Below, in pieces: positions 28,244 through 45,279 of a stretch of DNA of 64,000 bases. Position numbers and translations under genes: made by a program. Below the pieces are notes generated by a model that was given only the letters and a program-made list of their open reading frames with translations, was not told the DNA's origin and searched no databases. Numbering within the stretch: position 1 is the first letter of the stretch; every line of letters starts with the position of its first letter. Source of the stretch: Roseovarius arcticus (GTDB taxonomy: Bacteria; Pseudomonadota; Alphaproteobacteria; Rhodobacterales; Rhodobacteraceae); contig NZ_SZZN01000001.1 of assembly GCF_006125015.1 (NCBI RefSeq), positions 1,178,001 to 1,242,000 of the forward strand, in the 5' to 3' direction.

Positions 28244-30237
28244 GTCAGGCCCAGCCTTTCCTTGGATTTAGCGGCCATGGCCGAGATCATGCGATCCGCG
28301 ATGATCGCAATGAACGCCACGGAAAGGCCTGCGACGATGCCCTGACCCACATTAGCCTTGGTCAGCGCGATATAGACTTCCTGTCCCAGATCGCGCGTGC
28401 CCACGAGGGCGGTGATGACCAGCATCGACAGCGCCAGCATGATCGTCTGGTTTAGCCCCAAGAGAAGCGAAGGCGCGGCCAGCGGCAGCTTGATGCGCCA
28501 TAGTAATTGGCGGGGCGTGCAGCCGGCGACCAGCCCCGCCTCGATCATCTGCGGATCGACAGACCGTACGCCATGCGCGGCATAGCGAACGGCAGGGGCG
28601 AGCGCATAGAGGACGACCGCGATCATGGCCGAGAAGTCGCCAACTCGGAACAGCATCACCACCGGGATCAGATACACAAAGCTGGGCAGCGTTTGCAGCG
28701 TGTCGATGAACGCGCCGACCCAAGCATGGGCGCGCGCCCGTTGCCCGGCCCAGATGCCCAGCGGCACGCCAATTGCATAAGCGATCAGTACGGACACGCC
28801 GCACAGGTAGACGGTCGTCATCGCCTTGTCCCAGAGGCCCACAGCCGCGATCAGCCCAGCCATGACCGCAGCCATCAGGCCCAAGCGCCAGCCGCCCACG
28901 CGCGCCGCCGCCAGACCAGCGGCGATGATGCCCCAAGCCCACGGGATGCCAGTGAAAAAGCGCTTGACCGGCAGCAGCAGCCACGTGAGGAAGAAGGATT
29001 TGATCGTGTCCAGCGTGTCAAAGAACGTAATATTGATCCAGCGCATCGCATCCTCCCAGAACGCGCTGGTCGTCAGCGTAAACCGCTCGGGGTAGTCCTG
29101 CACGAAAGGCAGCGCGAGGCTGGCAAGGTATGTAACAACCACGATGAGCGCGGCAACCACCAGATAGGGATGGCGCTGGGCGATGTTTGCGCCGCGCACG
29201 GGCGCCGCGTCTGGCAGGCGGCTCGCAAAGGCTTGGCTTACCCGGTCCAGCGCGATGGCGATGACCACAATAGCGAGGCCCGCCTCAATGCCGCCGCCAA
29301 TGTCGAGGCGGCGCAGCGCACTGAGCACGTCAAAGCCAAGGCCGCCGGCGCCGATCATAGACGCGATGATGACCATGTTCAGCGATAGCATGATGACTTG
29401 GTTGACGCCCACCATCAGCGTCGGTGCGGCAGAGGGCACCAGCACCTTCCACATCATCTGGCGCTTTGTGCAGCCGGCCATATGGCCGGCCTCGACCACC
29501 TCAGGCGGCACCGATTGCAGGGCAACCGTCGCCACCCGCACCATCGGCGGCATGGCGTAGATCACGGTGGCAACCAGCGCCGAGACGGGGCCAAAGCCGA
29601 AGAGGAAGAGGATCGGCACCAGATAGGCAAAAATCGGGACCGTCTGCATCAGGTCCAGCACCGGGCGCAACGACCGTTCGACCCACGCCGCGCGATAGCT
29701 CGCGATGCCAAGGGCAAGGCCCCCCAGCACCCCGATCGGGACGGCGATGACGACGGACGCCAGCGTGACCATGGCGCTGTCCCACTGGCCAAAGACCGCC
29801 AGATAGACAAAGCATGCACCGACGAGCGCGGCCAGCCCCCAGCCGCGTGCGTAGCGCGCCAGCAGCACCATAAGCGCTGTAACCGCGATCCAGCTAAGCG
29901 GCGGCGCGATGTCGACCGCATTGCTGCCCAGACCGCGCACAAAACCGTCTGCCAACAGCGCGCGTGCCGCGTCATACGGCACCTCAATGATGGCCGAGAT
30001 AAAGCGGGTCAGTTCTTGAAACGTGAAGAGACCGAAACTGGCATCCTCCAGCAGCCATTTCATTGCCGACGATATCCAACCCTCGAAATTTAGCTGCCAA
30101 CCCTTGGGAAAGCGGATGATCCAGCGGGCGTCCAGCGCCTTGTAAAGTGGGAATGAATAGGTCGAAAGCGCCCAAGTCAGGCCCAGCAAACCCCACCAGA
30201 AAAGCGCGCTGGGCGTGGTGAGGCGCCGCCAGTTCAT
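28240..30237 (-). CDS. Betaine/quaternary-amine ABC transporter permease, tandem fusion
   Basis: This 665-residue membrane protein contains two ProW/OpuAB-type permease domains in one chain. Each has an EAA loop: VVEAGHMAGCTKRQMMWKVL in the first half and MIEAGLVAGCTPRQLLWRIK in the second, followed by similar GLNQTIML / GVNQVIML helices. Normal ProW-type permeases are about 280-350 residues and dimerise; here the dimer is built in. It overlaps the ATPase gene by 4 bases and serves glycine-betaine-like compounds. Confidence 0.92.
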   Translation of the reverse strand: MNWRRLTTPSALFWWGLLGLTWALSTYSFPLYKALDARWIIRFPKGWQLNFEGWISSAMKWLLEDASFGLFTFQELTRFISAIIEVPYDAARALLADGFVRGLGSNAVDIAPPLSWIAVTALMVLLARYARGWGLAALVGACFVYLAVFGQWDSAMVTLASVVIAVPIGVLGGLALGIASYRAAWVERSLRPVLDLMQTVPIFAYLVPILFLFGFGPVSALVATVIYAMPPMVRVATVALQSVPPEVVEAGHMAGCTKRQMMWKVLVPSAAPTLMVGVNQVIMLSLNMVIIASMIGAGGLGFDVLSALRRLDIGGGIEAGLAIVVIAIALDRVSQAFASRLPDAAPVRGANIAQRHPYLVVAALIVVVTYLASLALPFVQDYPERFTLTTSAFWEDAMRWINITFFDTLDTIKSFFLTWLLLPVKRFFTGIPWAWGIIAAGLAAARVGGWRLGLMAAVMAGLIAAVGLWDKAMTTVYLCGVSVLIAYAIGVPLGIWAGQRARAHAWVGAFIDTLQTLPSFVYLIPVVMLFRVGDFSAMIAVVLYALAPAVRYAAHGVRSVDPQMIEAGLVAGCTPRQLLWRIKLPLAAPSLLLGLNQTIMLALSMLVITALVGTRDLGQEVYIALTKANVGQGIVAGLSVAFIAIIADRMISAMAAKSKERLGLT

Positions 30238-31253
30238 GTGCGGGGCCGTCCGATCAGCACGTCGACGACGGCTGCGGCATCCACTTGGCCTACGGCCGCT
30301 CCGTCCTGGGTCACGCGAAACGGGCGCTGGGCCGCCTCGACAGAATCGGCCACGTCGGCGATGCGGGACGCCGCATCCAAATCGCCCGCAAAGGGGCCGC
30401 TGCCGAGGGGGGCCATAATTGCGCCGATGCTAAGTACTTTGCCGCGCGGGATATGCTTGGTAAATTCGGCGACGTAGTCATTGGCTGGATTTAGCACCAA
30501 TTCCTCGGGCGTGGCGGTCTGCACAATGCGCCCGTCCTTCATCACTGCGATCCGGTCAGCGAGGCGGATTGCCTCGTCAAAATCATGCGTGATGAACACG
30601 ATTGTCTTATGCAGTAGGCCCTGCAGCCTCATAAATTCATCCTGCATCTCGCGCCGGATAAGAGGGTCCAGCGCCGAGAACGGCTCGTCCAGAAACCAGA
30701 TCTCGGGCTCGCCCACGAGGGAGCGCGCGATACCGACGCGCTGCTGCTGGCCGCCAGATAACTGGCGGGGAAAGTTATCCTCGCGGCCCTTCAGGCCAAC
30801 GATGTCGATCATCTTATGCGCGCGCGCCTCGCGGGTAGCGCGGTCGACGCCCTGCACATCCAGCGGAAACGCGATGTTTTGCAAGACGGTCAGATGCGGC
30901 AAGAGGGCAAAGTTCTGGAACACCATCCCGATCTTGCGCCGGCGCAACTGCGTCAGCTGCGCCGCGTTCATCGCCAGCAGATCTTCGCCGTCAAATTCGA
31001 TCTCGCCGCCCGTCGGCTCCACCAGCCGCGACAGGCACCGGACAAGCGTAGATTTGCCGGAGCCAGACAACCCCATGATGACGAAAATCTCGCCCTCGCG
31101 AATTTCGACATTGGCAGCGCGCACGGCGCCGATCATGGCGCCCTCTGCGAGGTCCGCATCAGTAGGGTCGGCGTTTTGGTCTAGAAAGCCGCGCGCGTCC
31201 GCGCCGTACAGCTTCCAGACGTTGCGGCAAAGAAGTTTACGCGCACGGGGCAT
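30234..31253 (-). CDS. Betaine/quaternary-amine ABC transporter ATP-binding protein (ProV-like)
   Basis: This 339-residue ATPase has Walker A GLSGSGKST, signature LSGGQQQRVGIARSL, Walker B IWFLDEPFSALDPLIRREMQDE, and the ProV/OpuAA-type N-terminal extension RNVWKLYGADARGF. The C-terminal region after residue 260 is a short regulatory extension without a clear CBS pair. The ATG at 31253 has GAGGTG 5 bases upstream; the longer frame reaches into the hairpin after the binding-protein gene. Second gene of the operon. Confidence 0.93.
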   Translation of the reverse strand: MPRARKLLCRNVWKLYGADARGFLDQNADPTDADLAEGAMIGAVRAANVEIREGEIFVIMGLSGSGKSTLVRCLSRLVEPTGGEIEFDGEDLLAMNAAQLTQLRRRKIGMVFQNFALLPHLTVLQNIAFPLDVQGVDRATREARAHKMIDIVGLKGREDNFPRQLSGGQQQRVGIARSLVGEPEIWFLDEPFSALDPLIRREMQDEFMRLQGLLHKTIVFITHDFDEAIRLADRIAVMKDGRIVQTATPEELVLNPANDYVAEFTKHIPRGKVLSIGAIMAPLGSGPFAGDLDAASRIADVADSVEAAQRPFRVTQDGAAVGQVDAAAVVDVLIGRPRT

Positions 31254-31306
31254 CAAACACCTCGGAGTGGCCCACTTGCGGGCATTATCAGGGCTTGAGA
31301 GAAAAA

Positions 31307-31329
31307 CGGGGGGCAAAACGCGCCCCCCG
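31307..31329 (-). terminator. GC-rich hairpin with T-run between binding-protein and ATPase genes
   Basis: An 8-bp stem (31307-31314 with 31322-31329, six consecutive G:C pairs) is followed on the minus strand by five T. It has the form of an intrinsic terminator and probably attenuates transcription so that the binding protein exceeds the membrane parts. Confidence 0.8.
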
Positions 31330-31354
31330 GTTAGCCTCAGGAAGGTTCGTGTGC

Positions 31355-32293
31355 TTAGTTGATCCAGCCGTCCACTTTGGCCGCGTTATCAGCCATCCAC
31401 TGATCCGCGACTGCCTCAATGGATTGCCCATCCAGATCAACGGCCGACACCATCGCGCCCATTTCCTCATTAGTGAGGGTGTAGTTGCGGACAATCTCGG
31501 CAGCGCCCGGCCATTTATCCTCGACTCCAGCCCACGCGACCTTCCAGATGGGGCCTGTCGGCTTGCCGCAGTCATAGGCGGCGTCCGGGTTTATACCGAC
31601 CGAGGCATCATCGTAGCAGGCCTTGGAGTATTCGGGGAATTCGATGAACTTACCATCGTATTTCGCAGGGGCCCAGTGCGGCGAGTAAAGCCACAAGACA
31701 ATTGGCGCCTCGCGCTGATAGGCCGACTCAAGCTCCGCGAATAGTGCCGCATCCGTGCCCGCATGGACCACCTCGAAATCTAGGCCAAGCGCCTCGACAC
31801 GCTCTTCGTCAAAGCCGCCCCATGTGACGGGCCCCCCCAGATAGCGGCCCAGCGGGGCCGTTTCGGACGTGGCGAATTCCGACGCACAGTTGTTCAGCGC
31901 CTCCCAATCGGGCAGTCCGGGGCAGCGCGCCTCCATATAGCTGGGGTACCACCATTCCTCGATGGCGATCATCCCGCCTTCGCCCATGTTAACGACGTTG
32001 CCGGTCGCGACGGCCTCGTCCATCGCCTCGCGGCCCGTCGTTTCCCAAATTTCGGTGGCGACGTGCAGATCGCCGGTTTTGAGGCCTGCGAATTGCGCGA
32101 TGTAGTCGGCTTGTACCAGTTCGGTATTGTAGCCCGCCTTTTGCAGCACGTCCTGAAGGATGGTCGTGTTGATGATCTGGCCGGTCCAGTCATGCGTGGT
32201 CAGACGGATCGGATCCTGGCTTTCAACCTCGGCAATGGCGGGCAAGGCGGCAAGCGTGGCGCACGCGGCGGCGGAGAAGGCGATACGTTTCAT
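31355..32293 (-). CDS. Glycine-betaine-type (OpuAC/ProX) substrate-binding protein
   Basis: This 312-residue periplasmic protein has a signal peptide (cleavage near AIAEV). Its body has THDWTGQIINTTILQDVLQKAGY at the start and several tryptophan/tyrosine-rich segments (IEEWWYPSYME, LWLYSPHWAPAKYD), the aromatic cages that bind quaternary amines. It is the first gene of the operon and diverges from the DeoR-type regulator 200 bases away. Candidate ligands are betaine, choline, TMAO or another methylated amine. Confidence 0.9.
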   Translation of the reverse strand: MKRIAFSAAACATLAALPAIAEVESQDPIRLTTHDWTGQIINTTILQDVLQKAGYNTELVQADYIAQFAGLKTGDLHVATEIWETTGREAMDEAVATGNVVNMGEGGMIAIEEWWYPSYMEARCPGLPDWEALNNCASEFATSETAPLGRYLGGPVTWGGFDEERVEALGLDFEVVHAGTDAALFAELESAYQREAPIVLWLYSPHWAPAKYDGKFIEFPEYSKACYDDASVGINPDAAYDCGKPTGPIWKVAWAGVEDKWPGAAEIVRNYTLTNEEMGAMVSAVDLDGQSIEAVADQWMADNAAKVDGWIN

Positions 32294-34048: not shown

Positions 34049-34111
34049 GGTCGCTGGGCCTGGCGGTGGCGCCGTGATATAGTGTTGCCCGTCTCACGGA
34101 AATTTAGCGAC

Positions 34112-35113
34112 ATGACCCAATCGGACTATATCCCCAAAGGCGCGGCCAGCTTTCGCATCGCGCCGGTCGCAGCGCCGCGCATGTTCGATTTCGTGCTGTT
34201 GCCCAAGCTGACGATGCTCGCGCTATCCGCTGCCATTGAGCCGTTGCGCGTTGCCAATCAGATATCGCAGCAGGAGCTGTACCGCTGGCGCACCATGACG
34301 TCCGGCGGCGGGCATATCCGCTGCTCCAACAACCTGGCGCTGGTGCCTGACGCGCCCCTTAGCCCGCCAGCGCGGGGGGCGCGCGTTTTCATCTGTTCGG
34401 GCGTGGAGCCGGCAGAGACCGTGGACACGTCCGTCATCCACTGGGCCGCGCGGCAGGCGGCGCATGGCACACCGGTGGGCGCGATCTGCACGGGGGCATT
34501 CACGCTGGCGCGAGCCGGACTGCTGGGCGGGCGCACGTTCACGCTGCACTGGGAAAACCAGCCCGCCTTTGTCGAGGCGTTTCCGAATTTGGTGCCAACC
34601 CCGAACCTTTATGAGGTGGACGGCGATCTAATGACGGCGGCGGGCGGGTCTGCGTCGACCGACCTGATGCTAAGCGTCATCGAGGATGATTTCGGTCCAG
34701 ATTTCGCGCTGGTCGTGTCGGATATGTGCCTGCACGGACGCAGCCATTCGGACCACGCGCCGCAGCAAACCGCGCGCTCGGCAGTGATTGGCAGCCGCAA
34801 TAGTCACTTGATCGCCGCGATGCGCCTGATGCAGCTGCATCTGGAAGAGCCGATGACGGTAGAGGCCATCGCCAGCGAGGCGGGCATATCAAAACGCCAG
34901 TTGGAGCGAAGTTTTTCGCAGCATACTGGCCTTAGCCCGCGACGATACTACACTGATATGCGGCTGTCGCGCGCCTACTCGCTGCTAAGTGAGACGGACC
35001 TGCCCATCGCCGAGATCGCCGCCGCCACAGGCTTTGGCGGCACGTCAGCATTTGCACGGGCCTTTCGGGCCAAGTTTGACGTGGCGCCGGGCAAATTTCG
35101 CAAGCGTTGGTAG
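34112..35113 (+). CDS. GlxA-family (DJ-1/PfpI plus AraC) transcriptional regulator 1
   Basis: This 333-residue protein has an N-terminal DJ-1/PfpI-like domain (FDFVLLPKLTMLALSAAIEPL; GAICTGAFTLARAGLL with a Cys at the nucleophile position) and a C-terminal AraC double HTH (VEAIASEAGISKRQLERSF; PIAEIAAATGFGGTSAFARAF). GbdR, CdhR and SouR, regulators of betaine, carnitine and sarcosine breakdown, belong here. The ATG at 34112 is preferred over a GTG ten codons upstream. Its neighbours are the amine transporter cluster on the left and the convergent nitrilase-decarboxylase operon on the right; either could be the target. Confidence 0.9.
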   Translation: MTQSDYIPKGAASFRIAPVAAPRMFDFVLLPKLTMLALSAAIEPLRVANQISQQELYRWRTMTSGGGHIRCSNNLALVPDAPLSPPARGARVFICSGVEPAETVDTSVIHWAARQAAHGTPVGAICTGAFTLARAGLLGGRTFTLHWENQPAFVEAFPNLVPTPNLYEVDGDLMTAAGGSASTDLMLSVIEDDFGPDFALVVSDMCLHGRSHSDHAPQQTARSAVIGSRNSHLIAAMRLMQLHLEEPMTVEAIASEAGISKRQLERSFSQHTGLSPRRYYTDMRLSRAYSLLSETDLPIAEIAAATGFGGTSAFARAFRAKFDVAPGKFRKRW

Positions 35114-35144: not shown

Positions 35145-36137
35145 TCACTCTGCCGCAGATGACACCCCTTCGGGTGTATAAATCACACGCGTATCCTCGC
35201 GGAAATCATGTAAGTCCAGCGGCCAGCGGGCGCGGGGCCAGCGCATTTCCATTTGCAGCCGTTGAGGCCGGTAGACCGCCGTGTATAGCGTTCCGAACCC
35301 CTGATCGAACCGCGAAGAATAGAGCGGCGGGCGCAAGAAGGCATTGATGAACTTTTCCTCAGGCTCCACATGCAGGGTCATGCGCTGGAGCAGGTAGCGC
35401 TCGCGCTCGACCGTTGCGGTAAACCGCGCATGGCTCGCCCATTCCACCCGCTCTTGGTGGTTTGTCGCGACGGCCTGATGGGTGATCACTGCCTTGCGGT
35501 CGGGCGCCATAAGGGCGGTCAGGAACTGCCGCTTGGCGTCAACCACGGTGACGTTATAGCTCATATGCGTTGGGATGCGGGCCAGCGCGCGGCCCGCCTC
35601 GGCGGCCGTCTCGCAGGTTTGCAGGACGTAGCGCAGGATCAGCGGCACGCCAAAGCCGTCGCCAACCACGCGCCGACCGCCAAATGTCAGCGAGACCGCC
35701 AGCCCCGCATCGTTTATCCCGTCGACCAGCCCCCAAAGGCCGTCGGACGTGCCCATAACGGCGCGGCCTTGCCACTTTGTGCGCAATGTCAGGCTGTCGA
35801 ACGCCTTGGGCGAATAGTCGTAATTGCGCACTAAAACGGGCTCGGCCCCCGGCCAGATCGCTTGGGAGCAGGACGACAGGTAGGGTGGCGGACAGTAAAA
35901 GCTGAGAAAGCGCGCCGCCTGATCGCTGCCGCCTGCCAGCTCGACAAGCTGGTCGTAGAGGGGCAGCATTTCGGGCATATGCGCGCGCAGCGCCTTGTGA
36001 CTATCGAGGAAGCCTGGCCGCGCCTCGGCACCCTCGCGCGCCCACCAGCGATGGTAGTCGGGCCAGTATTCACGGAAAAGCCCGGCCCATTTAGGGCCGG
36101 GATCATCCTCGGAAATTGCGCGCCAGTTCAATTGCAT
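35145..36137 (-). CDS. C45-type autoproteolytic acyltransferase/amidohydrolase (Ntn-hydrolase fold)
   Basis: This 330-residue protein resembles the peptidase C45 / acyl-CoA:6-aminopenicillanate acyltransferase family. SSCSQAIWPGAEPVLVRNYDYSP contains the likely N-terminal nucleophile Cys90 after self-cleavage, followed by the RNYD-type segment conserved in Ntn hydrolases. GLVDGINDAGLAVSLTFGGR and a late NHQ (VATNHQERVEW) also fit. Such enzymes form or hydrolyse amide bonds. It is the last gene of a four-gene operon, 5 bases after the ATP-grasp stop. Confidence 0.78.
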   Translation of the reverse strand: MQLNWRAISEDDPGPKWAGLFREYWPDYHRWWAREGAEARPGFLDSHKALRAHMPEMLPLYDQLVELAGGSDQAARFLSFYCPPPYLSSCSQAIWPGAEPVLVRNYDYSPKAFDSLTLRTKWQGRAVMGTSDGLWGLVDGINDAGLAVSLTFGGRRVVGDGFGVPLILRYVLQTCETAAEAGRALARIPTHMSYNVTVVDAKRQFLTALMAPDRKAVITHQAVATNHQERVEWASHARFTATVERERYLLQRMTLHVEPEEKFINAFLRPPLYSSRFDQGFGTLYTAVYRPQRLQMEMRWPRARWPLDLHDFREDTRVIYTPEGVSSAAE

Positions 36138-36142
36138 GGGAC

Positions 36143-37600
36143 TTACATGATCTTGAATGCCGGATCGGCAAGGGCTGGCCCCGCCTCGGCGGTCGGCAAT
36201 GGCCGCCCATGAACGCCGTTCTTGATGCCGTGAATCCAGCGCTTGCCACGCTCATTCAGCTTAAATCCATTGGTCATTGAGCGCCCGCGCGTGACGAGAA
36301 TACCGATATCGGCACCCTCATAGCGGTAATCGCCCGGCTGCAGAATACGCAAGAAGAACGCCTCATTTTCACTTTCCACCGCGCGGCGGTGATAGTCAAA
36401 GCGGTTGAAATCGATGCTGCCGTCTTCCTTCATCCGGTAGATGCCCGTCTCGGGGACTTCGGTCGCGATGTCGACGGTGTCGTCGGTGTGCTTTATGACC
36501 ATCTGGGACCAGCTGTCGATCATCTTGGGATCGGCCCAACGGCTGTTCAGTTCGTCCACGTCCAGCGAGAATTTTTTCTTGGAGAATTCGAGCAGGTGGA
36601 ACAGGAACAAGGGCGCGTCCGCATGCGCAAAGGCCGCGTGGTTCGTCATCGACGAGCAGCCAGTGATGCGCGGGTTCAACTCGCCCAGCCAGATATCGCC
36701 GGTTTTTTTGTCGATCAGGAAATCCAACTCAAAATAGCCGCGATAGCCCTCCTTACGCAGTTGCTCACCGAACTTGAAGGTCAGCTCACGCGCTTTCTGG
36801 CGGACCTTCGGAGGGAAGGCCGTCGATAAAATCTCGTTCCCGCACCAACCGCCGCGATAAGGTGTCAGTTCTTTGAAGCCGACAAGCTCGGTCATCAGTG
36901 GGCCGACGATCGTGCCCTCCTTGGTGGCGCAGCCCTCAATCGCCGATCCGCGGCAATCAATTCGCTTCATAATCTTGATCTCGCCCTCGCCGACGATGTC
37001 GTGCTCATGGCGGCGGAAATCAGCCTCGGATTTTATGAAAAACGTTGTATGGCCACTATCGCCAAAGGCCGATTGCAGTACCAGATCGTGGCCGAGGCCC
37101 GCTTTGTCGCAAATCTCTTTCAGGTTATCGTAGCTCTCGACCACGCTCAGCGTGTTTGGCACAGACGGCACGCCGGCCTTGTTGCCGATGCGGACGGTCT
37201 CGATCTTGTTGTCCATCTTCTGGCGCAGCTTGGCCTTGGGGAACCAGACATCGGCGCCCAGCTCTTTGGACAGGCGCTCGGTTTCCTCGTCGAACATGAG
37301 GAACACAAACTTGGGCTTGCCGCCGCGCCGCTTGATGAGGTCGATGACCTCTTTGTGCTGCAGCAGATAGTTGTTGATGTCCTCAATCGACTGGAATTCA
37401 GCATGCGGCTGCTCGCTAGGGACGAACGTGTTCGGATGTTTGCCGCCGTAGCAGTCGATATAGCAGATATACTTGAAGTTCTTGCACCATTCATCCAGCC
37501 CCAAAAGGTTGAAGTTGGTGGCCGAGATGAAATAGATCGGATCTTCGTTGCGGTGAAAGTGGCGGCGGATTTCCGAGATATTCTTGAGCTCTGCGGACAT
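36143..37600 (-). CDS. ATP-grasp carboxylate-amine ligase-like protein
   Basis: This 485-residue protein has an ATP-grasp core: KMDNKIETVRIGNKAGVPSVP, LVLQSAFGDSGHTTFFI (flexible glycine loop), and YFELDFLIDKKTGDIWLGELNPRI split around residue 310, with the metal-binding Glu/Asn. Automated annotation tends to say 'biotin carboxylase', but it lacks biotin-domain partners. Ligases of this kind join an amine to a carboxylate through an acyl phosphate. AGGAGG lies 10 bases before the ATG. It sits between the PLP decarboxylase and the C45-type enzyme in one operon. Confidence 0.82.
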   Translation of the reverse strand: MSAELKNISEIRRHFHRNEDPIYFISATNFNLLGLDEWCKNFKYICYIDCYGGKHPNTFVPSEQPHAEFQSIEDINNYLLQHKEVIDLIKRRGGKPKFVFLMFDEETERLSKELGADVWFPKAKLRQKMDNKIETVRIGNKAGVPSVPNTLSVVESYDNLKEICDKAGLGHDLVLQSAFGDSGHTTFFIKSEADFRRHEHDIVGEGEIKIMKRIDCRGSAIEGCATKEGTIVGPLMTELVGFKELTPYRGGWCGNEILSTAFPPKVRQKARELTFKFGEQLRKEGYRGYFELDFLIDKKTGDIWLGELNPRITGCSSMTNHAAFAHADAPLFLFHLLEFSKKKFSLDVDELNSRWADPKMIDSWSQMVIKHTDDTVDIATEVPETGIYRMKEDGSIDFNRFDYHRRAVESENEAFFLRILQPGDYRYEGADIGILVTRGRSMTNGFKLNERGKRWIHGIKNGVHGRPLPTAEAGPALADPAFKIM

Positions 37601-37665
37601 GTTGGGTGGTCCTCCTGTTGGGTAGGTCTTTTTTTTGATTTTGTCGTTGGTCAGAGATTGGCTGG

Positions 37666-40425
37666 CTATAGATTGGCCCGAGCGTCGTTAAGTTTCAACC
37701 TTGCAGTGTTAGCTTTGCCCGCGCGCTTCAGCGCATCTTGGGTAAAGACGCGCAGGCCCAGATCGCCGCGATAGCCGTGGATTTCGCTGACGTCCAACGC
37801 GCGCATGAATGCCAGGATTTCCGCGCTAACCACCTGTCCGGGGACGAGGATGGGAAAGCCGGGGGGATAAGGGATGATGAACTGCGCCGATACGACGTCG
37901 TCCCCGGTGGACATTGCCTCGTGGATGCTGCCGTCCAGCTCCAAATAGTCGCAATTCTTGTCGTCATAGCTAAGGAAGAAGGCCGAGCGTATGTCGCCCT
38001 CGGGCGTTTCCTTACCAGAGCGGAAGGAATCGTGGAAACGGCTGAAGTCGGGCAGGGGTGGCAGATCATCCATCAGATTGGCCACGCGCTTCTCAAAGCC
38101 GCGCCGCTCCATCATTGAGGCGTCGTCCTGCAATTCGTCCAACTCGCGCGCGATTTCGACCAACACTTCGATCAGGTAGGCGACCGAGGATCGCGTGGTG
38201 CCGATATTGGTCATAAAGAGGACCGTATTGCGCGACGTCTTGTTGATCTGAATACCGTACTTATCCATCAGGATCTCGGTCTTGAACGTGTCACCGTCCC
38301 AGCCAGTGGCACCAACGGCCAGCGTCACGCGGGTCGCGTCCAGCACAAACTCGTCGTTCTCCCAGCAGTCCCAGATATCGGTCCAACCCTGCTCGGGATC
38401 GTAATACGACTCAACGCCGCTCTCGCGGTGCTCCTCAGGGATCATGTCGCCGGCGGTCAGCACCTTGAAGTATTTTTGCAAGAGCGGATGGGTCGAGATT
38501 GCCCGCCGCATCGACATCGCCGCCTCAACCTGTCTTTGAACGAATTCAAAGCCTTCCAGCTCGACTTGCCTGCGGCCCACGTCCAGCGACGCGATGATCT
38601 GGTAGTTGGGCGAGGTGGACGTATGCGTCATGTACGCCTCGCGAAACGATGCCTCGACTTCGCCTTTGAAGTCCTGATCGTTGACGTGGATCATCGAGCC
38701 TTGGCGCAGCGACGTCAGTGTCTTGTGCGTCGATTGGGTGGCATAGACGCGGACGCGGCTGGTCGGCGGCGGAATGAGGCGGGTGTTTATCAACGTCTCC
38801 GCGTCCGCGTCCTTCAGCTTTTCCTGCTGGGCGGCATATGCCTCTGCGTGGCTGTCGCTGCGGAACCGCTCGCGCAGGTTGTTTGCGGCGTTCATTGCAG
38901 TGCGCTGTCGGTAGGTCGGGCCAAAGCGGGCAAATGCGAACCACGCCTCGTCCCACAGGAACACGAGGTCGGGCTTGATGGCGAGGCATTCCTCCATCAT
39001 CCGCTCAACGTTATAGACGATGCCGTCGAAGGTGCAGTTCGTCAGCAGCAGCATCCGCACACGGTCAAGCTTTCCGGCGGCTTTCAGCTCCAACAATTGG
39101 CGCTTGATGTCCTTCAGCGGCACCGCGCCATACATCGAATACTCATTGAGCGGATAACTATCCAGATAGCAGACCTGCGCGCCCGCCAGCACCATTCCGT
39201 AGTGATGCGATTTGTGACAGTCGCGGTCGACTAGAACGATATCTCCTGGTCTTACAAGGGCTTGGACGACGATCTTGTTGCAGGTTGAGGTGCCGTTAGT
39301 GGCGAAATACGTCTGTTTCGATCCGAACGCGCGGCTGGCAAGGCGCTGCGCCTCTTTGATCGGGCCATGCGGCTCTAGCAGACTGTCGAGGCCGCCGGAC
39401 GTGGCAGATGTTTCCGCCAGAAAGATGTTGGGGCCATAGAAGGCGCCCATATCCTGAATCCAGTGCGACCGGGAAATGGACTTGCCCCGGCTGATGGGCA
39501 TCGCGTGAAACACGCCTGTCGGCTGCTTGGAATACTCGACCAGCGCAGTAAAGAACGGCGTTTTGTAGCGCGCCTGAACGCCGCGGATGATGTTCAGGTG
39601 CAGCTCTAGGAAATCTTCTTGGTTGTAGAACACGCGGCGGCAGATGCCGAGGTCCAGACCCGCAATATCCTCGACCGAGCGGTCGGTGATGAGGTATGCG
39701 TCCAATTCGGGCCGCACGCGGGCGATCATGCGACACAGCTCGGGGCCGTAGTTGCTAGGGTCCAGCTCCTCCAGCGCCTTCATGCCGCCGGCGCGTTTCA
39801 GATACCGCTCAAGGATGGGCAGCACCATTTTCGACGTCAGCGTCAGACCGGGGCGCACCACGATGGCCTGAATGTTGTGATTAAACAGTACCCCCAATAG
39901 TGCATCCTGAAGGCTGGGCACGACGACCGCCTCGTAGTGAAAGGGGTCCTCTGGGCGGCGCATCCGCTGGAAATTTGACTTCAACCAGCGCTCCTGATGC
40001 TCGTTCAGGTTGTCGACGACCATCACCTCAAAATAGGGCTTGGTCAGGGCACGGGCCTCTAGCGATTGCATCGCCTCGTCCTCGTGATCGTCTGCGTCGA
40101 CGCTGTCGCGATCCAATGGGATATGTCGCCGGCGGTACGCGCCGCTGGTCAGCGCGCGCGTGATGCGCTGCACGGTATGGGACAACTCTTCATGATGTCC
40201 GGCATCGAAGTGGCGGCGCAGGACGTCAAAGGCAGGAGTGCCGGGAAAGGCCCAATATGTCTCTATCGGGGCCAGTTGGTCCAGCAAGTTGTCGATCTTC
40301 TCGATCAGACCCTTGGACCCGCGCCCGCCGTCCGCGCGCACCAACTCCGCGGAGGCTTCGCGCAGCGAACTCCACCTGTCGGACCGCAGTTGAACCGCTG
40401 AATAATAGTCTGCCATCGAATGCAT
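37666..40425 (-). CDS. Large Orn/Lys/Arg-type PLP-dependent decarboxylase
   Basis: This 919-residue fold-type I PLP enzyme is of the prokaryotic ornithine/lysine/arginine decarboxylase group. ATSGGLDSLL and ATNGTSTCNKIVVQAL build the cofactor pocket, WDEAWFAFARF carries Asp492 for the pyridine nitrogen, and QSTHKTLTSLRQGS carries the Schiff-base Lys568. A wing-like domain of about 300 residues precedes the catalytic core, and the chain is some 160 residues longer than AdiA or SpeF. It may decarboxylate a basic amino acid or a derivative. It lies 65 bases upstream of the ATP-grasp gene. Confidence 0.85.
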   Translation of the reverse strand: MHSMADYYSAVQLRSDRWSSLREASAELVRADGGRGSKGLIEKIDNLLDQLAPIETYWAFPGTPAFDVLRRHFDAGHHEELSHTVQRITRALTSGAYRRRHIPLDRDSVDADDHEDEAMQSLEARALTKPYFEVMVVDNLNEHQERWLKSNFQRMRRPEDPFHYEAVVVPSLQDALLGVLFNHNIQAIVVRPGLTLTSKMVLPILERYLKRAGGMKALEELDPSNYGPELCRMIARVRPELDAYLITDRSVEDIAGLDLGICRRVFYNQEDFLELHLNIIRGVQARYKTPFFTALVEYSKQPTGVFHAMPISRGKSISRSHWIQDMGAFYGPNIFLAETSATSGGLDSLLEPHGPIKEAQRLASRAFGSKQTYFATNGTSTCNKIVVQALVRPGDIVLVDRDCHKSHHYGMVLAGAQVCYLDSYPLNEYSMYGAVPLKDIKRQLLELKAAGKLDRVRMLLLTNCTFDGIVYNVERMMEECLAIKPDLVFLWDEAWFAFARFGPTYRQRTAMNAANNLRERFRSDSHAEAYAAQQEKLKDADAETLINTRLIPPPTSRVRVYATQSTHKTLTSLRQGSMIHVNDQDFKGEVEASFREAYMTHTSTSPNYQIIASLDVGRRQVELEGFEFVQRQVEAAMSMRRAISTHPLLQKYFKVLTAGDMIPEEHRESGVESYYDPEQGWTDIWDCWENDEFVLDATRVTLAVGATGWDGDTFKTEILMDKYGIQINKTSRNTVLFMTNIGTTRSSVAYLIEVLVEIARELDELQDDASMMERRGFEKRVANLMDDLPPLPDFSRFHDSFRSGKETPEGDIRSAFFLSYDDKNCDYLELDGSIHEAMSTGDDVVSAQFIIPYPPGFPILVPGQVVSAEILAFMRALDVSEIHGYRGDLGLRVFTQDALKRAGKANTARLKLNDARANL

Positions 40426-40517
40426 ATTAATTCCCCGCTATTATTGGCAGGCGATCAGATGATGAGAGCAGTGACGTCGTGCCGTCTCAGTCTGATCGGC
40501 CGCAGTTATTATTTATA

Positions 40518-41552
40518 TCAGTTGGTAATCGGCGGCGTGCCTCCGGCCTTTATGCCGGGCATAACGCCGACGGGCGGCTCTGCATCCTCTTGCATCCGCA
40601 GCGGCAGGGGCATGTGCCCTTGTCCCTCCAGCGTGCCGGGCCTCGTGCCCACCGGATCGCCCAGACCCGCCCGCGCTGCACCTGAATGGTCCTGTCCGGG
40701 CACAACTAAAGGGCCCAATGTGTGCAGGTAAGCATCGGTGCCGCTGCTGCGGTCGTAGACGGAAAAATCGACCTCGCGGTCGCGAAAGCTCTTGAGGACT
40801 TGGCCCAGCCCCTTCATGCCGCGCTCGCGCTGGCGGCGCACATAGCTGAGGTCGACCTCAATGGGAAACATGTCCTCCTGTCCCGCCGACTGGTGCAATA
40901 CTGTCGAGGTTGGGTCAATCACGCATGATTTGCCCACACCGCCGGCACCAAGGCCATTCACATCAATGACATAGCACTGGAACTGCGCGGCAGTGGCGCG
41001 GGCAATCGACAGCTCTGCCTCGCGGTCGGTCGTGCCGGTCAGGACCGGATGCAGTAACACCTCGACGCCCTGCGAGGTCAGTTGGCGCGTCGTTTCGGGA
41101 AACCACATGTCATAGCAGATCGAGAGGCCAAAACGCCCCACATCGGGCACATCGAACACGCAAAAACCCGTGCCCGCCTCAACGCCCGCTTCATAGGGGC
41201 GAAATGGGAACATCTTGCGATAGTTGCACACAACTTCGCCCGCGGGATTGATCACCGAGGAGGTGTTATAGATGCGCCCGTCCTCGGCCGTCTCAAACAT
41301 CGAGCCGGGGATCAGCCAGACGTTATGGCGGCGCGCTGCCTCGCAGAACCGATCAACGGTTTCATTCCGCAGCGGCAGCGAAAACTTGGTCAGCGGCCCG
41401 AATGGCGCCAGCTCGGAAAACAGCACCATCTGCGTCCAGGGAAAGCGCGTCATCAGCAGGTCAAGCCTGTGGATCATCCCATCGACATTGGATTGCAGCG
41501 CGTTCACGTACATCTGAACACCTGCGATTGCGAATGGCGTCATAGAGAGCAT
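40518..41552 (-). CDS. Carbon-nitrogen hydrolase (nitrilase superfamily amidase)
   Basis: This 344-residue protein has the Glu-Lys-Cys triad in order: Glu47 (LFSELAPFG), Lys113 (NYRKMFPF) and Cys146 (SICYDMWFPE). The layout resembles amidases of the N-carbamoylputrescine / aliphatic amidase type rather than true nitrilases. The last 60 residues are proline- and glycine-rich and not part of the fold. First gene of the four-gene operon; AAGGA lies 4 bases before the ATG. The catalysed step is probably hydrolysis of an amide made or met in the pathway. Confidence 0.88.
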   Translation of the reverse strand: MLSMTPFAIAGVQMYVNALQSNVDGMIHRLDLLMTRFPWTQMVLFSELAPFGPLTKFSLPLRNETVDRFCEAARRHNVWLIPGSMFETAEDGRIYNTSSVINPAGEVVCNYRKMFPFRPYEAGVEAGTGFCVFDVPDVGRFGLSICYDMWFPETTRQLTSQGVEVLLHPVLTGTTDREAELSIARATAAQFQCYVIDVNGLGAGGVGKSCVIDPTSTVLHQSAGQEDMFPIEVDLSYVRRQRERGMKGLGQVLKSFRDREVDFSVYDRSSGTDAYLHTLGPLVVPGQDHSGAARAGLGDPVGTRPGTLEGQGHMPLPLRMQEDAEPPVGVMPGIKAGGTPPITN

Positions 41553-41691
41553 TTTTCCTTAGGAATGCATGCGGGTTCGGCCACCATACGACAGGTATTT
41601 GCTAAATAACAACAGGGGAGGAGGCGTGCCACAAGCGATTACGCAGCGTCAATCATGTGCGCACCGGGTCGGGCAAGTCAATAAAAGCTGG

Positions 41692-41763
41692 CTGGGGTGG
41701 TAGGATTCGAACCTACGATACACGGTACCAAAAACCGATGCCTTACCGCTTGGCTACACCCCA
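41692..41763 (-). tRNA. tRNA-Gln (anticodon TTG)
   Basis: A 72-nt cloverleaf on the minus strand has acceptor TGGGGTG/CACCCCA, D-arm GCC..GGC, anticodon loop TTTTGGT (anticodon TTG) and T-arm GTAGG-TTCGAAT-CCTAC. The discriminator is G, followed by an encoded CCA (41689-41691). The top anticodon-stem pair (27:43) is a T-T mismatch. Confidence 0.96.
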
Positions 41764-42560: not shown

Positions 42561-43541
42561 ATGCCATCAGAACGCCTGAGTGTTGTCGTGACGCGCCGCC
42601 TGCCGGCGCCCGTCGAGGCGCGACTAAGCGAATTGTTCAACGCCCATCTGCGCCCCGACGACACGCCAATGACCCGCGATGAGCTGGTCGAGGCCGCGCG
42701 CGGCGCCGACGTGCTGGTGCCGACGCTGTCCGACCGGATCGACGCAGGTCTGATCGGGCAGGCGGGCGACCGGCTGAAATTGATCGCAAATTATGGCGCG
42801 GGCGTTGACCATATCGACGTGGCCACGGCGCGACAGCGCGGCATACTGGTGTCCAACACACCGGGCGTGTCTGCGGACGATACTGCCGATATGGCGATGG
42901 CGCTGATCCTCGCCACATTGCGGCGCATCCCCGAGGGGCTTGCGATGATGCAATCAGGGGAATGGGCCGGCTGGTCGCCGACGGCCCTGATGGGCGGGCG
43001 CGTGTCAGGCCGGCGTCTGGGAATACTTGGCCTTGGACGGATCGGACAGGCGGTAGCGCGGCGCGCGGCGGCCTTTGGCATGCAGGTACACTACCACAAT
43101 CGCAAGCGCCTGCGGTCCGAGATTGAGGAGACATTGGGGGCCACCTATTGGGAGAGCCTCGACCAGATGGTCGCGCGGATGGACGTGATTTCGGTTAACT
43201 GCCCGCACACGCCGTCGACCTTTCACCTGATGAATGCACGCAGGTTAAAGCTGATGAAGCCGGAAGCGGTGATTGTGAACACCTCGCGCGGCGAAGTGAT
43301 CGACCAAAACGCGCTAACGCGGATGCTGCGCGCGGGCGACATCGCGGGCGCGGGTCTCGACGTTTATGAGGATGCCGCCAACCCGCGCCTGCGCGAGATG
43401 AAGAACGTGGTTTTGCTGCCTCATATGGGTTCGGCCACGCATGAGGGCCGCGTCGAGATGGGCGAAAAAGTGCTGCTGAACATCAAGACATGGGCAGATG
43501 GCCACCGCCCGCCCGATCAAGTCGTTCCGGCGATGCTGTAG
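42561..43541 (+). CDS. D-2-hydroxyacid dehydrogenase (glyoxylate/hydroxypyruvate reductase-like)
   Basis: This 326-residue enzyme has the Rossmann motif LGILGLGRIGQAVARRA near residue 155, catalytic Arg in VNTSRGEVIDQNAL, Glu in the LDVYEDAANPRL region and His in LLPHMGSATHEGR. It would interconvert a 2-keto acid and a D-2-hydroxy acid with NAD(P)H; glyoxylate or hydroxypyruvate reduction is the likeliest role. The ATG at 42561 follows AAGGAGG; the longer frame overlaps the divergent gene. The ggt gene starts one base after its stop, so they form one transcript. Confidence 0.92.
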   Translation: MPSERLSVVVTRRLPAPVEARLSELFNAHLRPDDTPMTRDELVEAARGADVLVPTLSDRIDAGLIGQAGDRLKLIANYGAGVDHIDVATARQRGILVSNTPGVSADDTADMAMALILATLRRIPEGLAMMQSGEWAGWSPTALMGGRVSGRRLGILGLGRIGQAVARRAAAFGMQVHYHNRKRLRSEIEETLGATYWESLDQMVARMDVISVNCPHTPSTFHLMNARRLKLMKPEAVIVNTSRGEVIDQNALTRMLRAGDIAGAGLDVYEDAANPRLREMKNVVLLPHMGSATHEGRVEMGEKVLLNIKTWADGHRPPDQVVPAML

Positions 43542-43542
43542 G

Positions 43543-45279
43543 ATGCGCGCGCTTTTCCTCGCTCTGATGTTCGCGGCTTCGGGCGCAGCCGCCCAGCAGG
43601 CTGCCGACGCAGTTGCGCCGGAGGTGGGTGCGTTTCAGGTCGGCGAGGCAGTCGCGCCTGTGACGGCCGAAAACTGGATGGTCGTCGCGGCCCATCCATT
43701 GGCAAGCAAGGCAGGCGCACGCGTTTTGCGGCAGGGCGGCACGGCCGCCGACGCCATGATCGCCGTGCAGCTCGTGCTGGGTCTTGTTGAGCCGCAAAGC
43801 TCAGGCCTTGGCGGCGGCGCGTTTTTGGTCTGGTGGGACGCGGCGGCGCAGACGCTGACCACCCTCGACGCGCGTGAAACGGCGCCGCAGGGCGCGACGC
43901 CGCTGCTGTTTCAAAATGCCGCCGGGCAGCCAATGGACTTCTTTGACGCCGTCGTCGGGGGCCGCTCGGTGGGGGTGCCCGGCACGCCGATGCTGCTGGG
44001 CGAGGCGCATGCGCGCTGGGGACGGCTGGACTGGGCGGACCTCTTTGAAGAGGCGCACGATCATGCGACGAACGGCTTTGCCGTCAGCCCGCGCATGGCC
44101 GCCTCCATCGCTGCCAATGCAGACACCCTAGACCGTTTTACCGCCACGCGGGATTACTATTTTCCGCAAGGCCGCGCGCTCAGGGAAGGGGATACGCTGA
44201 AAAATCCGGCCTACGCCCAGACGCTTGCGACCATTGCGCAAAACGGACCCGCGCCGTTCTATATTGGCGATATCGCGCGCCAGATCGTCCGCGCTGTGCA
44301 AACTGCGCCGGGCAATCCTGGCACGCTCGATCTGCTCGATCTGGCGCTTTACGCGGTCAAGGAAAGGCCCGCCGTTTGCGCTTCTTATCGTGCCTATGAG
44401 GTTTGCGGCATGGGGCCGCCATCCTCGGGCGCGATCGCCGTAGGCCAGACGCTGGGCGCCTTGGAGGCGTACGATCTGGCTGCATATGGTCCGCAATCGC
44501 CGGATGCGCGGCGGCTGATTGGCGATGCCAGCCGCCTCGCCTTTGCCGACAGGGGGCGCTATGTCGCCGATGCCGATTTTGTGCCTGTCCCGGTCGAAGG
44601 TATGCTCGATCCCGCCTATTTGGCTGCCCGCGGTGCGCTGCTGGGCGGCGATGCCGCACTGGAGAATACTGATCCCGGCCAGCCAAAATTCGACCACGCG
44701 CTGAACTGGGCGGATGACATTGCAGTGGAGGCGCCCTCGACCTCGCATATCTCCATCGTTGACAGCTACGGCAACGCACTGTCGATGACGACGACCATTG
44801 AGAACGCCTTCGGCTCGCGTGTCATGGCGGCTGGTTTTATGCTGAATAATGAGCTGACTGATTTCAGCTTTGCCAGTCACGAAAATGGCGTGCCCATCGC
44901 CAACGCGGTCGCGCCGGGCAAGCGGCCGCGCTCGTCCATGGCGCCAACGATTGTTCTAAAGGATGGCGCGCCTCGCCTCGTATTGGGCAGCCCCGGCGGC
45001 AGCCGCATCATTCCCTACGTCGCAAACGCGATCATCGGATATGTTGATTGGGGCATGGACGCGCAGGCAATCACGGCGATGCCGCATCTGGTAAATCGCT
45101 TTGGCACCTATGATCTGGAGGAGGGGACAGACGCCGAGGCGCTGGCCCAACCCCTCCGCGATATGGGCTATGAGGTAGAGTTGCGCGGCCTGAATTCGGG
45201 CCTTCATGCGATAGCTATCGGGGATGCCCTGACAGGCGGCGCCGATCCGCGCCGCGAGGGGCTGGCCATCGGCGAATAA
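43543..45279 (+). CDS. ggt: Gamma-glutamyltransferase, periplasmic
   Basis: This 578-residue proenzyme has a signal peptide (cleavage near AAAQQ). Self-cleavage is expected before Thr400 in PSTSHISIVDSYGNALSMT, which gives the nucleophile of the small subunit. Other family marks are GGTAADAMIAVQLVLGLVEPQSSGLGGG and RPRSSMAPTIVLKDG. It transfers or hydrolyses gamma-glutamyl groups of glutathione and related peptides. TSH replaces the common TTH. The ATG at 43543 directly follows the dehydrogenase stop. Confidence 0.95.
   Translation: MRALFLALMFAASGAAAQQAADAVAPEVGAFQVGEAVAPVTAENWMVVAAHPLASKAGARVLRQGGTAADAMIAVQLVLGLVEPQSSGLGGGAFLVWWDAAAQTLTTLDARETAPQGATPLLFQNAAGQPMDFFDAVVGGRSVGVPGTPMLLGEAHARWGRLDWADLFEEAHDHATNGFAVSPRMAASIAANADTLDRFTATRDYYFPQGRALREGDTLKNPAYAQTLATIAQNGPAPFYIGDIARQIVRAVQTAPGNPGTLDLLDLALYAVKERPAVCASYRAYEVCGMGPPSSGAIAVGQTLGALEAYDLAAYGPQSPDARRLIGDASRLAFADRGRYVADADFVPVPVEGMLDPAYLAARGALLGGDAALENTDPGQPKFDHALNWADDIAVEAPSTSHISIVDSYGNALSMTTTIENAFGSRVMAAGFMLNNELTDFSFASHENGVPIANAVAPGKRPRSSMAPTIVLKDGAPRLVLGSPGGSRIIPYVANAIIGYVDWGMDAQAITAMPHLVNRFGTYDLEEGTDAEALAQPLRDMGYEVELRGLNSGLHAIAIGDALTGGADPRREGLAIGE

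What the first reader, a model, noticed from the sequence alone, without database searches (positions are those of the whole stretch)
35145..41552. Four-gene operon of amidase, large PLP decarboxylase, ATP-grasp ligase and C45-type acyltransferase
The sequence shows nitrilase-fold amidase (Glu47/Lys113/Cys146), a 919-residue Orn/Lys/Arg-type decarboxylase (Lys568), an ATP-grasp ligase and an Ntn-type enzyme (Cys90) in one transcript. Decarboxylase plus ligase plus amide hydrolases would allow an amine to be made, joined to a carboxylate and released again, like a gamma-glutamyl-amine route built from other families. I know no described pathway with this set. Pathway direction and substrate are inference.
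Basis: partly seen in the sequence, partly recalled or inferred. Interest (0 to 1): 0.75.

Follow-up and report, generated by a model that had tools for sequence, protein, structure and literature searches.

The report
Conserved GABA-linked amide-making gene operon
Four neighbouring genes that travel together through very different bacteria probably make a small amine such as GABA, join it to a partner by an amide bond and split it off again, a pathway I could not find described; the data also suggest that this large decarboxylase does not use lysine, ornithine or arginine as its family name implies.

Summary
In detail: amidase (NIT), 919-residue decarboxylase (DC), ATP-grasp ligase (ATPG) and C45 Ntn enzyme lie on one strand, gaps 92, 65 and 5 bases, catalytic residues intact. 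It is a real module. In 198 genomes of the family (one per genus) DC and main-type ATPG occur in exactly the same 32. All four genes cluster in 32 of 39 and 55 of 80 loci fetched through ATPG, from Rhodobacterales to Halomonas, Myxococcales and a Phycisphaeraceae MAG; similarity matrices correlate at 0.82-0.95.

DC paralogues pair with AspT-family antiporters (10 of 10 loci). A GABA transaminase lies within 12 kb in 11 of 16 genomes; Thiofilum, without DC, has an arginine-to-GABA set beside ATPG-C45.

Best reading: GABA or a close omega-amino acid is made, amide-coupled by ATPG and released by C45/NIT, like Drosophila black-ebony-tan. Substrates and direction are inferred. Four literature searches found no description.

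The parts
40518..41552 (-). nitrilase-superfamily amidase (NIT), Glu47/Lys113/Cys146
   Evidence: no NCBIfam subfamily above cut-off
37666..40425 (-). large PLP decarboxylase (DC) of the Rv2531c type; PLP Lys568, Asp492; Asn728 and Gln864 where LdcI has Glu526 and Glu663
36143..37600 (-). ATP-grasp enzyme (ATPG), probably a carboxylate-amine ligase; annotated elsewhere as 'biotin carboxylase'
35145..36137 (-). C45/AAT-family Ntn amide hydrolase or acyltransferase, nucleophile Cys90

Best explanation
An omega-amino-acid amide cycle centred on GABA (or a near homologue such as beta-alanine or 5-aminovalerate). DC alpha-decarboxylates an amino acid whose side chain ends in a neutral or acidic group, most likely glutamate, giving GABA. 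ATPG uses ATP to make an amide between this omega-amino acid and a partner amine or acid. C45 (presumably autoprocessed at Cys90) and NIT split secondary and primary amides of this kind and give the omega-amino acid back. GABA transaminase and succinate-semialdehyde dehydrogenase, often linked, drain GABA to succinate. The logic is that of Drosophila black (acidic amino acid decarboxylase), ebony (ATP-dependent omega-aminoacyl-amine synthetase) and tan (relative of isopenicillin N acyltransferase), with a different ligase family. Shown: gene set, conservation, co-inheritance, conserved catalytic residues, altered DC pocket, GABA-gene linkage. Inferred: all substrates, the partner, and the net direction (synthesis with turnover, or salvage).
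Against: No substrate was tested. A ligase plus hydrolases for one bond would be futile unless regulated or separated by another step. The arginine set is not a strict replacement of DC: Roseateles XES5 has a DC elsewhere on the same plasmid, near arginase and ornithine cyclodeaminase, the Shinella genome outside its plasmid was not searched, and other DC-less loci (L036-L038, L141, L152) do not show the set. A urea transporter cluster sits by DC-ATPG-C45 in 11 loci in which NIT was not found and is not explained. L037/L038 hint at a five-carbon acid route, by family matches below cut-off. In 5 of the 16 genomes GabT is not linked, and in the window's own genome it is about 260 kb away. AspT linkage concerns paralogues (46-49% identity), not this DC. 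The role of LdcI Glu526 is itself a proposal.
Confidence: 0.35

Rival explanations
1. Puu-like protection of a basic amino acid or diamine. ATPG acylates the omega-amine of ornithine or lysine (or of a diamine), DC decarboxylates the blocked amino acid, an omega-aminotransferase and ALDH oxidise the free end, and C45 removes the acyl group to give GABA or 5-aminovalerate.
For: A neutral DC pocket also fits an acylated side chain; PuuR-like regulators; class III aminotransferase and ALDH in line with DC in Halomonas; DC of XES5 near arginase and ornithine cyclodeaminase.
Against: AspT-paired paralogues and Rv2531c share the same pocket without this ligase being their known partner; Thiofilum has a free-arginine set beside ATPG-C45.
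Confidence: 0.22
2. Amide route to GABA: ATPG makes a gamma-glutamyl amide, DC decarboxylates it to a GABA amide and C45 or NIT releases GABA (compare BtrJ/BtrK of butirosin synthesis, recalled).
For: Uses every enzyme in one line; neutral pocket; gabT and gabD downstream in L067; dipeptide-type ABC transporters beside the module in L068 and L069.
Against: Net result is glutamate decarboxylation at the cost of ATP; does not explain the DC-less Thiofilum variant.
Confidence: 0.15
3. One reading: DC is an ornithine, lysine or arginine decarboxylase and the ligase conjugates the resulting diamine or agmatine.
For: OKR_DC_1 family match; AdiA-like DEAW motif; arginine-linked variants.
Against: Both acidic pocket residues replaced in 38 of 38; paralogues with AspT.
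Confidence: 0.15
4. The four genes belong to separate known pathways and are neighbours by chance.
For: Each family has members elsewhere; C45 paralogues have another recurring context.
Against: Co-occurrence, synteny across phyla and co-inheritance.
Confidence: 0.02

Closest known systems
Rv2531c-type amino acid decarboxylase of Mycobacterium tuberculosis (PDB 9n0n, 9n0o)
   Same: Full-length match, 837 bits, same Asn/Gln pocket changes
   Different: Its gene neighbours were not examined here; its substrate is unknown (PMC12910592, passages)
E. coli Puu pathway (gamma-glutamylated putrescine to GABA; details recalled)
   Same: Ligase, hydrolase, ALDH, GABA transaminase and PuuR-like regulator; GABA as end-point
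   Different: ATP-grasp instead of a glutamine-synthetase-like ligase, C45 in the hydrolase role, DC included; the PuuR model is matched below cut-off
Drosophila black-ebony-tan cycle
   Same: Decarboxylase for an acidic amino acid, ATP-dependent omega-aminoacyl-amine synthetase, hydrolase resembling isopenicillin N acyltransferase (PMC5085778, passages)
   Different: Ebony is NRPS-related, ATPG is ATP-grasp; DC is OKR-fold; the bacterial partner is unknown; homology of C45 to Tan was not tested
Acyl-CoA:isopenicillin N acyltransferase (2x1c)
   Different: 11% identity; no penicillin context
Biotin carboxylase / PurK / PylC / BesA (ATP-grasp)
   Different: Biotin carboxylase Glu296 equivalent absent

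Membership tests
Orn/Lys/Arg decarboxylase (OKR fold) | PF01276 match above gathering score, PLP lysine and ring-nitrogen aspartate | tested here: met
   251 bits vs 27; Lys568 and Asp492 in 38 of 38
Orn/Lys/Arg decarboxylase (OKR fold) | acidic residue proposed for the substrate's distal amino group (LdcI Glu526) | tested here: not met
   Asn728 in 38 of 38, and Asn in Rv2531c
Orn/Lys/Arg decarboxylase (OKR fold) | NCBIfam model for a known specificity above cut-off | tested here: not met
   best 212.7 vs cut-off 968
biotin carboxylase | catalytic Glu296 equivalent (recalled numbering) | tested here: not met
   A18/I12/C3/V3 of 36, placed by the E-x-N-x-R register, not by a structure overlay
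biotin carboxylase | NCBIfam NF005096 above cut-off | tested here: met
   749.9 vs 684; the model's name is not supported by the active site
ATP-grasp fold | fold and Glu/Asn/Arg motif | tested here: met
   Glu307, Asn309, Arg311 in 36 of 36
C45 / AAT Ntn hydrolase | family match, Ntn fold, Cys nucleophile | tested here: met
   Cys90 in 55 of 55; preceding residue Gly 45, Ala 8, Ser 2, the window has Ser
C45 / AAT Ntn hydrolase | autoproteolysis | not testable with these tools
   needs protein
nitrilase superfamily | Glu-Lys-Cys triad and PF00795 | tested here: met
   25 of 25; 109.6 bits
formamidase, N-carbamoylputrescine amidase, aliphatic amidase | NCBIfam equivalog above cut-off | tested here: not met
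   72.8 vs 406, 66.3 vs 410.25, 56.9 vs 427
Puu pathway | glutamine-synthetase-like (PuuA-type) ligase as the module's ligase | tested here: not met
   the module's ligase is ATP-grasp; the one GS-like neighbour I noticed, in L158, scores 187 vs 650 for gamma-glutamylputrescine synthetase
Puu pathway | PuuD in the same genomes | not tested
   not searched
black-ebony-tan type cycle | decarboxylase, ligase and hydrolase acting on one omega-amino acid | not testable with these tools
   needs enzyme assays

The most novel reading that the evidence does not exclude
A bacterial counterpart of black-ebony-tan: a dedicated cycle that makes GABA or another omega-amino acid, stores or passes it on as an undescribed amide, and takes it back, spread over several phyla; and the Rv2531c decarboxylase family is an acidic or amide amino acid decarboxylase rather than an Orn/Lys/Arg one.
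Probability: 0.27. Interest if true: 0.8.

Novelty: new variant of a known kind. Interest (0 to 1): 0.6.

Why it matters
A four-enzyme module conserved across phyla and tied to GABA metabolism appears undescribed: searches found no paper holding the gene names together, and one search listed one metabolic-model paper that I did not open. The module would give substrates to a decarboxylase family that has a solved structure but no known reaction, question the name 'biotin carboxylase' on a large family (6881 relatives at E <= 1e-3 among the 8000 candidates scored), and point to an unknown amide metabolite in marine, halophilic and root-nodule bacteria. Each step can be assayed directly.

Tried and rejected

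Literature. (decarboxylase, ATP-grasp ligase, C45, carbon-nitrogen hydrolase): 0 papers. (C45 family, ATP-grasp, putrescine): 0. (C45 family, biotin carboxylase): 0. (at least 4 of 5 terms): 1, a metabolic network paper seen only as a listing. (citrulline decarboxylase) 11 papers and (Rv2531c) 7 papers, seen as listings except PMC12910592. PMC9007349 (outline and passages) concerns citrullinase, not this set. PMC8983666 (passages) did not tell the arginine-binding residues. The Rv2531c structure paper was not held and is known only through PMC12910592 (passages).

Limits of the counts. All loci were fetched through ATPG, so they say how often the others accompany ATPG; the unbiased test is. 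Of the family's ATPG places, five were not taken into the 39 regions (G133, G158, G078, G087, G119:C86). Genes were labelled by BLAST score thresholds, so a strongly diverged NIT in L081-L093 cannot be excluded. Neighbour clusters are single-linkage with one or a few representatives annotated; several neighbours were recognised by eye only. Loci near contig ends can lack genes for that reason (for example L035, L039, L138, L152). The 103 loci include 5 decarboxylase-only loci. Alignment rows: of the loci passing length and 82% redundancy filters, L112 and L092 were left out of A2 and L091 and L148 out of A5.
Full report
What is there. Four minus-strand ORFs, 41552-40518, 40425-37666, 37600-36143 and 36137-35145, encode a nitrilase-type amidase (NIT), a 919-residue PLP decarboxylase (DC), an ATP-grasp enzyme (ATPG) and a C45 Ntn enzyme. 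The gaps are 92, 65 and 5 bases. Promoter- and terminator-like patterns are at shuffle level, so one transcript is likely but unproven.

A conserved module. In 198 genomes of the window's family, one per genus, ATPG of the main type (78-100% identity, split over contigs in two) is in 32, and DC (E <= 1e-80) is in the same 32. Four more genomes (G180, G034, G100, G038) have a diverged ATPG (44-57%) and no DC; G119 has both types; G028 has a short 39% fragment. C45 (E <= 1e-45) is in 38: the 36 plus G028 and G063. In a phylum sample 10 of 349 genomes have ATPG at E <= 1e-40. Of 39 regions around ATPG, 32 hold all four genes, DC is in 34, NIT in 37, C45 in 39, and ATPG-C45 are adjacent on one strand in 33. 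Gene order varies: NIT-DC-ATPG-C45 in Rhodobacterales, NIT-ATPG-C45-DC in Halomonas and Marinobacter, divergent pairs in L045. Records titled Enhygromyxa salina, Gemmatimonadetes, Phycisphaeraceae and Crocinitomicaceae (the last three MAGs) are among them; in the Crocinitomicaceae contig DC and ATPG are about 4 kb apart. Plasmid records: ATPG in 32, 24 of them covering at least 80% of it; DC in 39; many are Rhizobium and Sinorhizobium plasmids. Pairwise similarity matrices of the four proteins correlate at 0.82-0.95 over 89-124 loci; 300 label permutations reached at most 0.14. This shows co-inheritance, not function.

Neighbours point to GABA. In 20 module-bearing genomes of the family (20 of the 32), 16 have a GABA transaminase 54-62% identical to that of L038; in 11 of the 16 it lies within 12 kb of ATPG, in 5 it does not (about 3e-21 if genomes were independent, which related genomes are not). 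L067 reads NIT-DC-ATPG-C45-gabT-gabD, with GabT 795.8 (cut-off 724) and SSADH 701.5 (cut-off 646). Another class III aminotransferase (PRK07483, 763-765 vs 485) lies directly after C45 in L060 and L058. Across 103 loci an ALDH cluster occurs in 39, an aminotransferase cluster in 26 and a PuuR-like regulator cluster in 10; representatives: Halomonas ALDH best SSADH 598 (cut-off 646), Halomonas aminotransferase PRK07482 802 (687, unnamed function), PuuR model 142 (211); the ALDH of the Myxococcales locus L094 is not SSADH-like in its best match. In the window's own genome the best GabT is about 260 kb away. Other neighbours: dipeptide-type ABC transporters in L068 and L069, TRAP-like transporters (by eye), glutamate/aspartate-type binding proteins below cut-off in L077 and L140, an NAD-glutamate dehydrogenase cluster in 3 loci and a urea transporter cluster in 11 loci in which NIT was not found (one representative each annotated).

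DC-less variants. On plasmids of Shinella and Roseateles XES5 ATPG-C45 lie between an agmatinase-family gene, 5-guanidino-2-oxopentanoate decarboxylase and ALDH on one side and D-amino-acid dehydrogenase, alanine-racemase-type and RidA genes on the other (the Shinella decarboxylase scores 736.8 vs cut-off 500). By established knowledge of those families this is a route from arginine to GABA. Thiofilum (L124) has a like set after ATPG-C45. The genomes of L124, L141 and L152 have no DC at E <= 1e-40; those of L138 and L126 do. XES5 has a DC elsewhere on the plasmid, and L036-L038, L141 and L152 do not show the arginine set, so the exchange is suggestive, not strict.

The decarboxylase is not an ordinary OKR enzyme. 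Of 19 PDB sequences matched, only 9n0n and 9n0o align over the full length (837 bits); 9n0o is Rv2531c, whose activity is unknown (PMC12910592, passages). Aligned to LdcI, Glu526 corresponds to Asn728 and Glu663 to Gln864, both in 38 of 38 DC rows (35 module-type, 3 AspT-type) and in Rv2531c. The three canonical chains displayed keep both Glu. Glu526 has been proposed as a lysine-binding residue (PMC5607190, passages); that role is not proven. The loss of both charges argues against a free terminal amine or guanidinium and for a carboxylate, amide, ureido or acylated side chain. Paralogues at 46-49% identity sit beside one or two AspT-family antiporters in 10 of 10 loci examined (L073-L075, L171-L177; found), which suggests acidic amino acids for that branch.

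Interpretation. Taking the pocket, the AspT paralogues, the GABA genes and the arginine variant together, the simplest common metabolite is GABA. The module would then supply GABA, couple it by ATP-grasp chemistry and split the amide by C45 and NIT. The insect black-ebony-tan cycle has the same three steps with aspartate, beta-alanine and a biogenic amine, and Tan resembles isopenicillin N acyltransferase (PMC5085778 and PMC8834685, passages). This is likeness of logic; homology of C45 to Tan was not tested. Puu-like protection of ornithine or lysine, or decarboxylation of a gamma-glutamyl amide, are not excluded. Which partner is coupled, and whether the net flow is synthesis or salvage, cannot be told from sequence.

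Novelty. Searches of the open paper library for the gene combination gave no description; most subscription papers are not in it, so this is weak evidence of absence. The enzyme families are known; the combination and its likely chemistry are, as far as I could find, not described.

Noticed in passing
window 43498-45279 (+): Gamma-glutamyltransferase (TIGR00066, 415 vs cut-off 358) close to the operon on the other strand; a relative also lies in L040 (cluster c32).
   Followed up: no
L161:8434-9579 (own genome C1:3047622-3048569) and L162-L170: Second C45 paralogue (41-48% identity) with an RHH_8-type regulator in 10 of 10 loci and a PHB-depolymerase-type esterase in 7 of 10: another recurring, unnamed gene set.
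   Followed up: partly
L073-L075, L171-L177: Rv2531c-type decarboxylase paralogues beside AspT-family antiporters in 10 of 10 loci, a possible acid-resistance or energy-yielding decarboxylase/antiporter system.
   Followed up: partly
L081-L091: Urea transporter cluster (one representative, L085, matches PF03253) beside DC-ATPG-C45 in 11 loci in which NIT was not found; unexplained.
   Followed up: partly
window 34082-35113 (+) and 30234-32293 (-): GbdR-like AraC regulator (276 vs cut-off 480) and betaine/choline-type ABC genes next to the operon; not recurring neighbours of the module in the 39 loci.
   Followed up: no
window 41689-41763 (-): tRNA-Gln 136 bases upstream of the amidase gene on the same strand; no tRNA-Gln in 16 related loci.
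   Followed up: yes
NCBIfam NF005096: Model named 'biotin carboxylase' covers this ATP-grasp family although the catalytic Glu296 equivalent is missing in 36 of 36; possibly a wide misannotation.
   Followed up: partly
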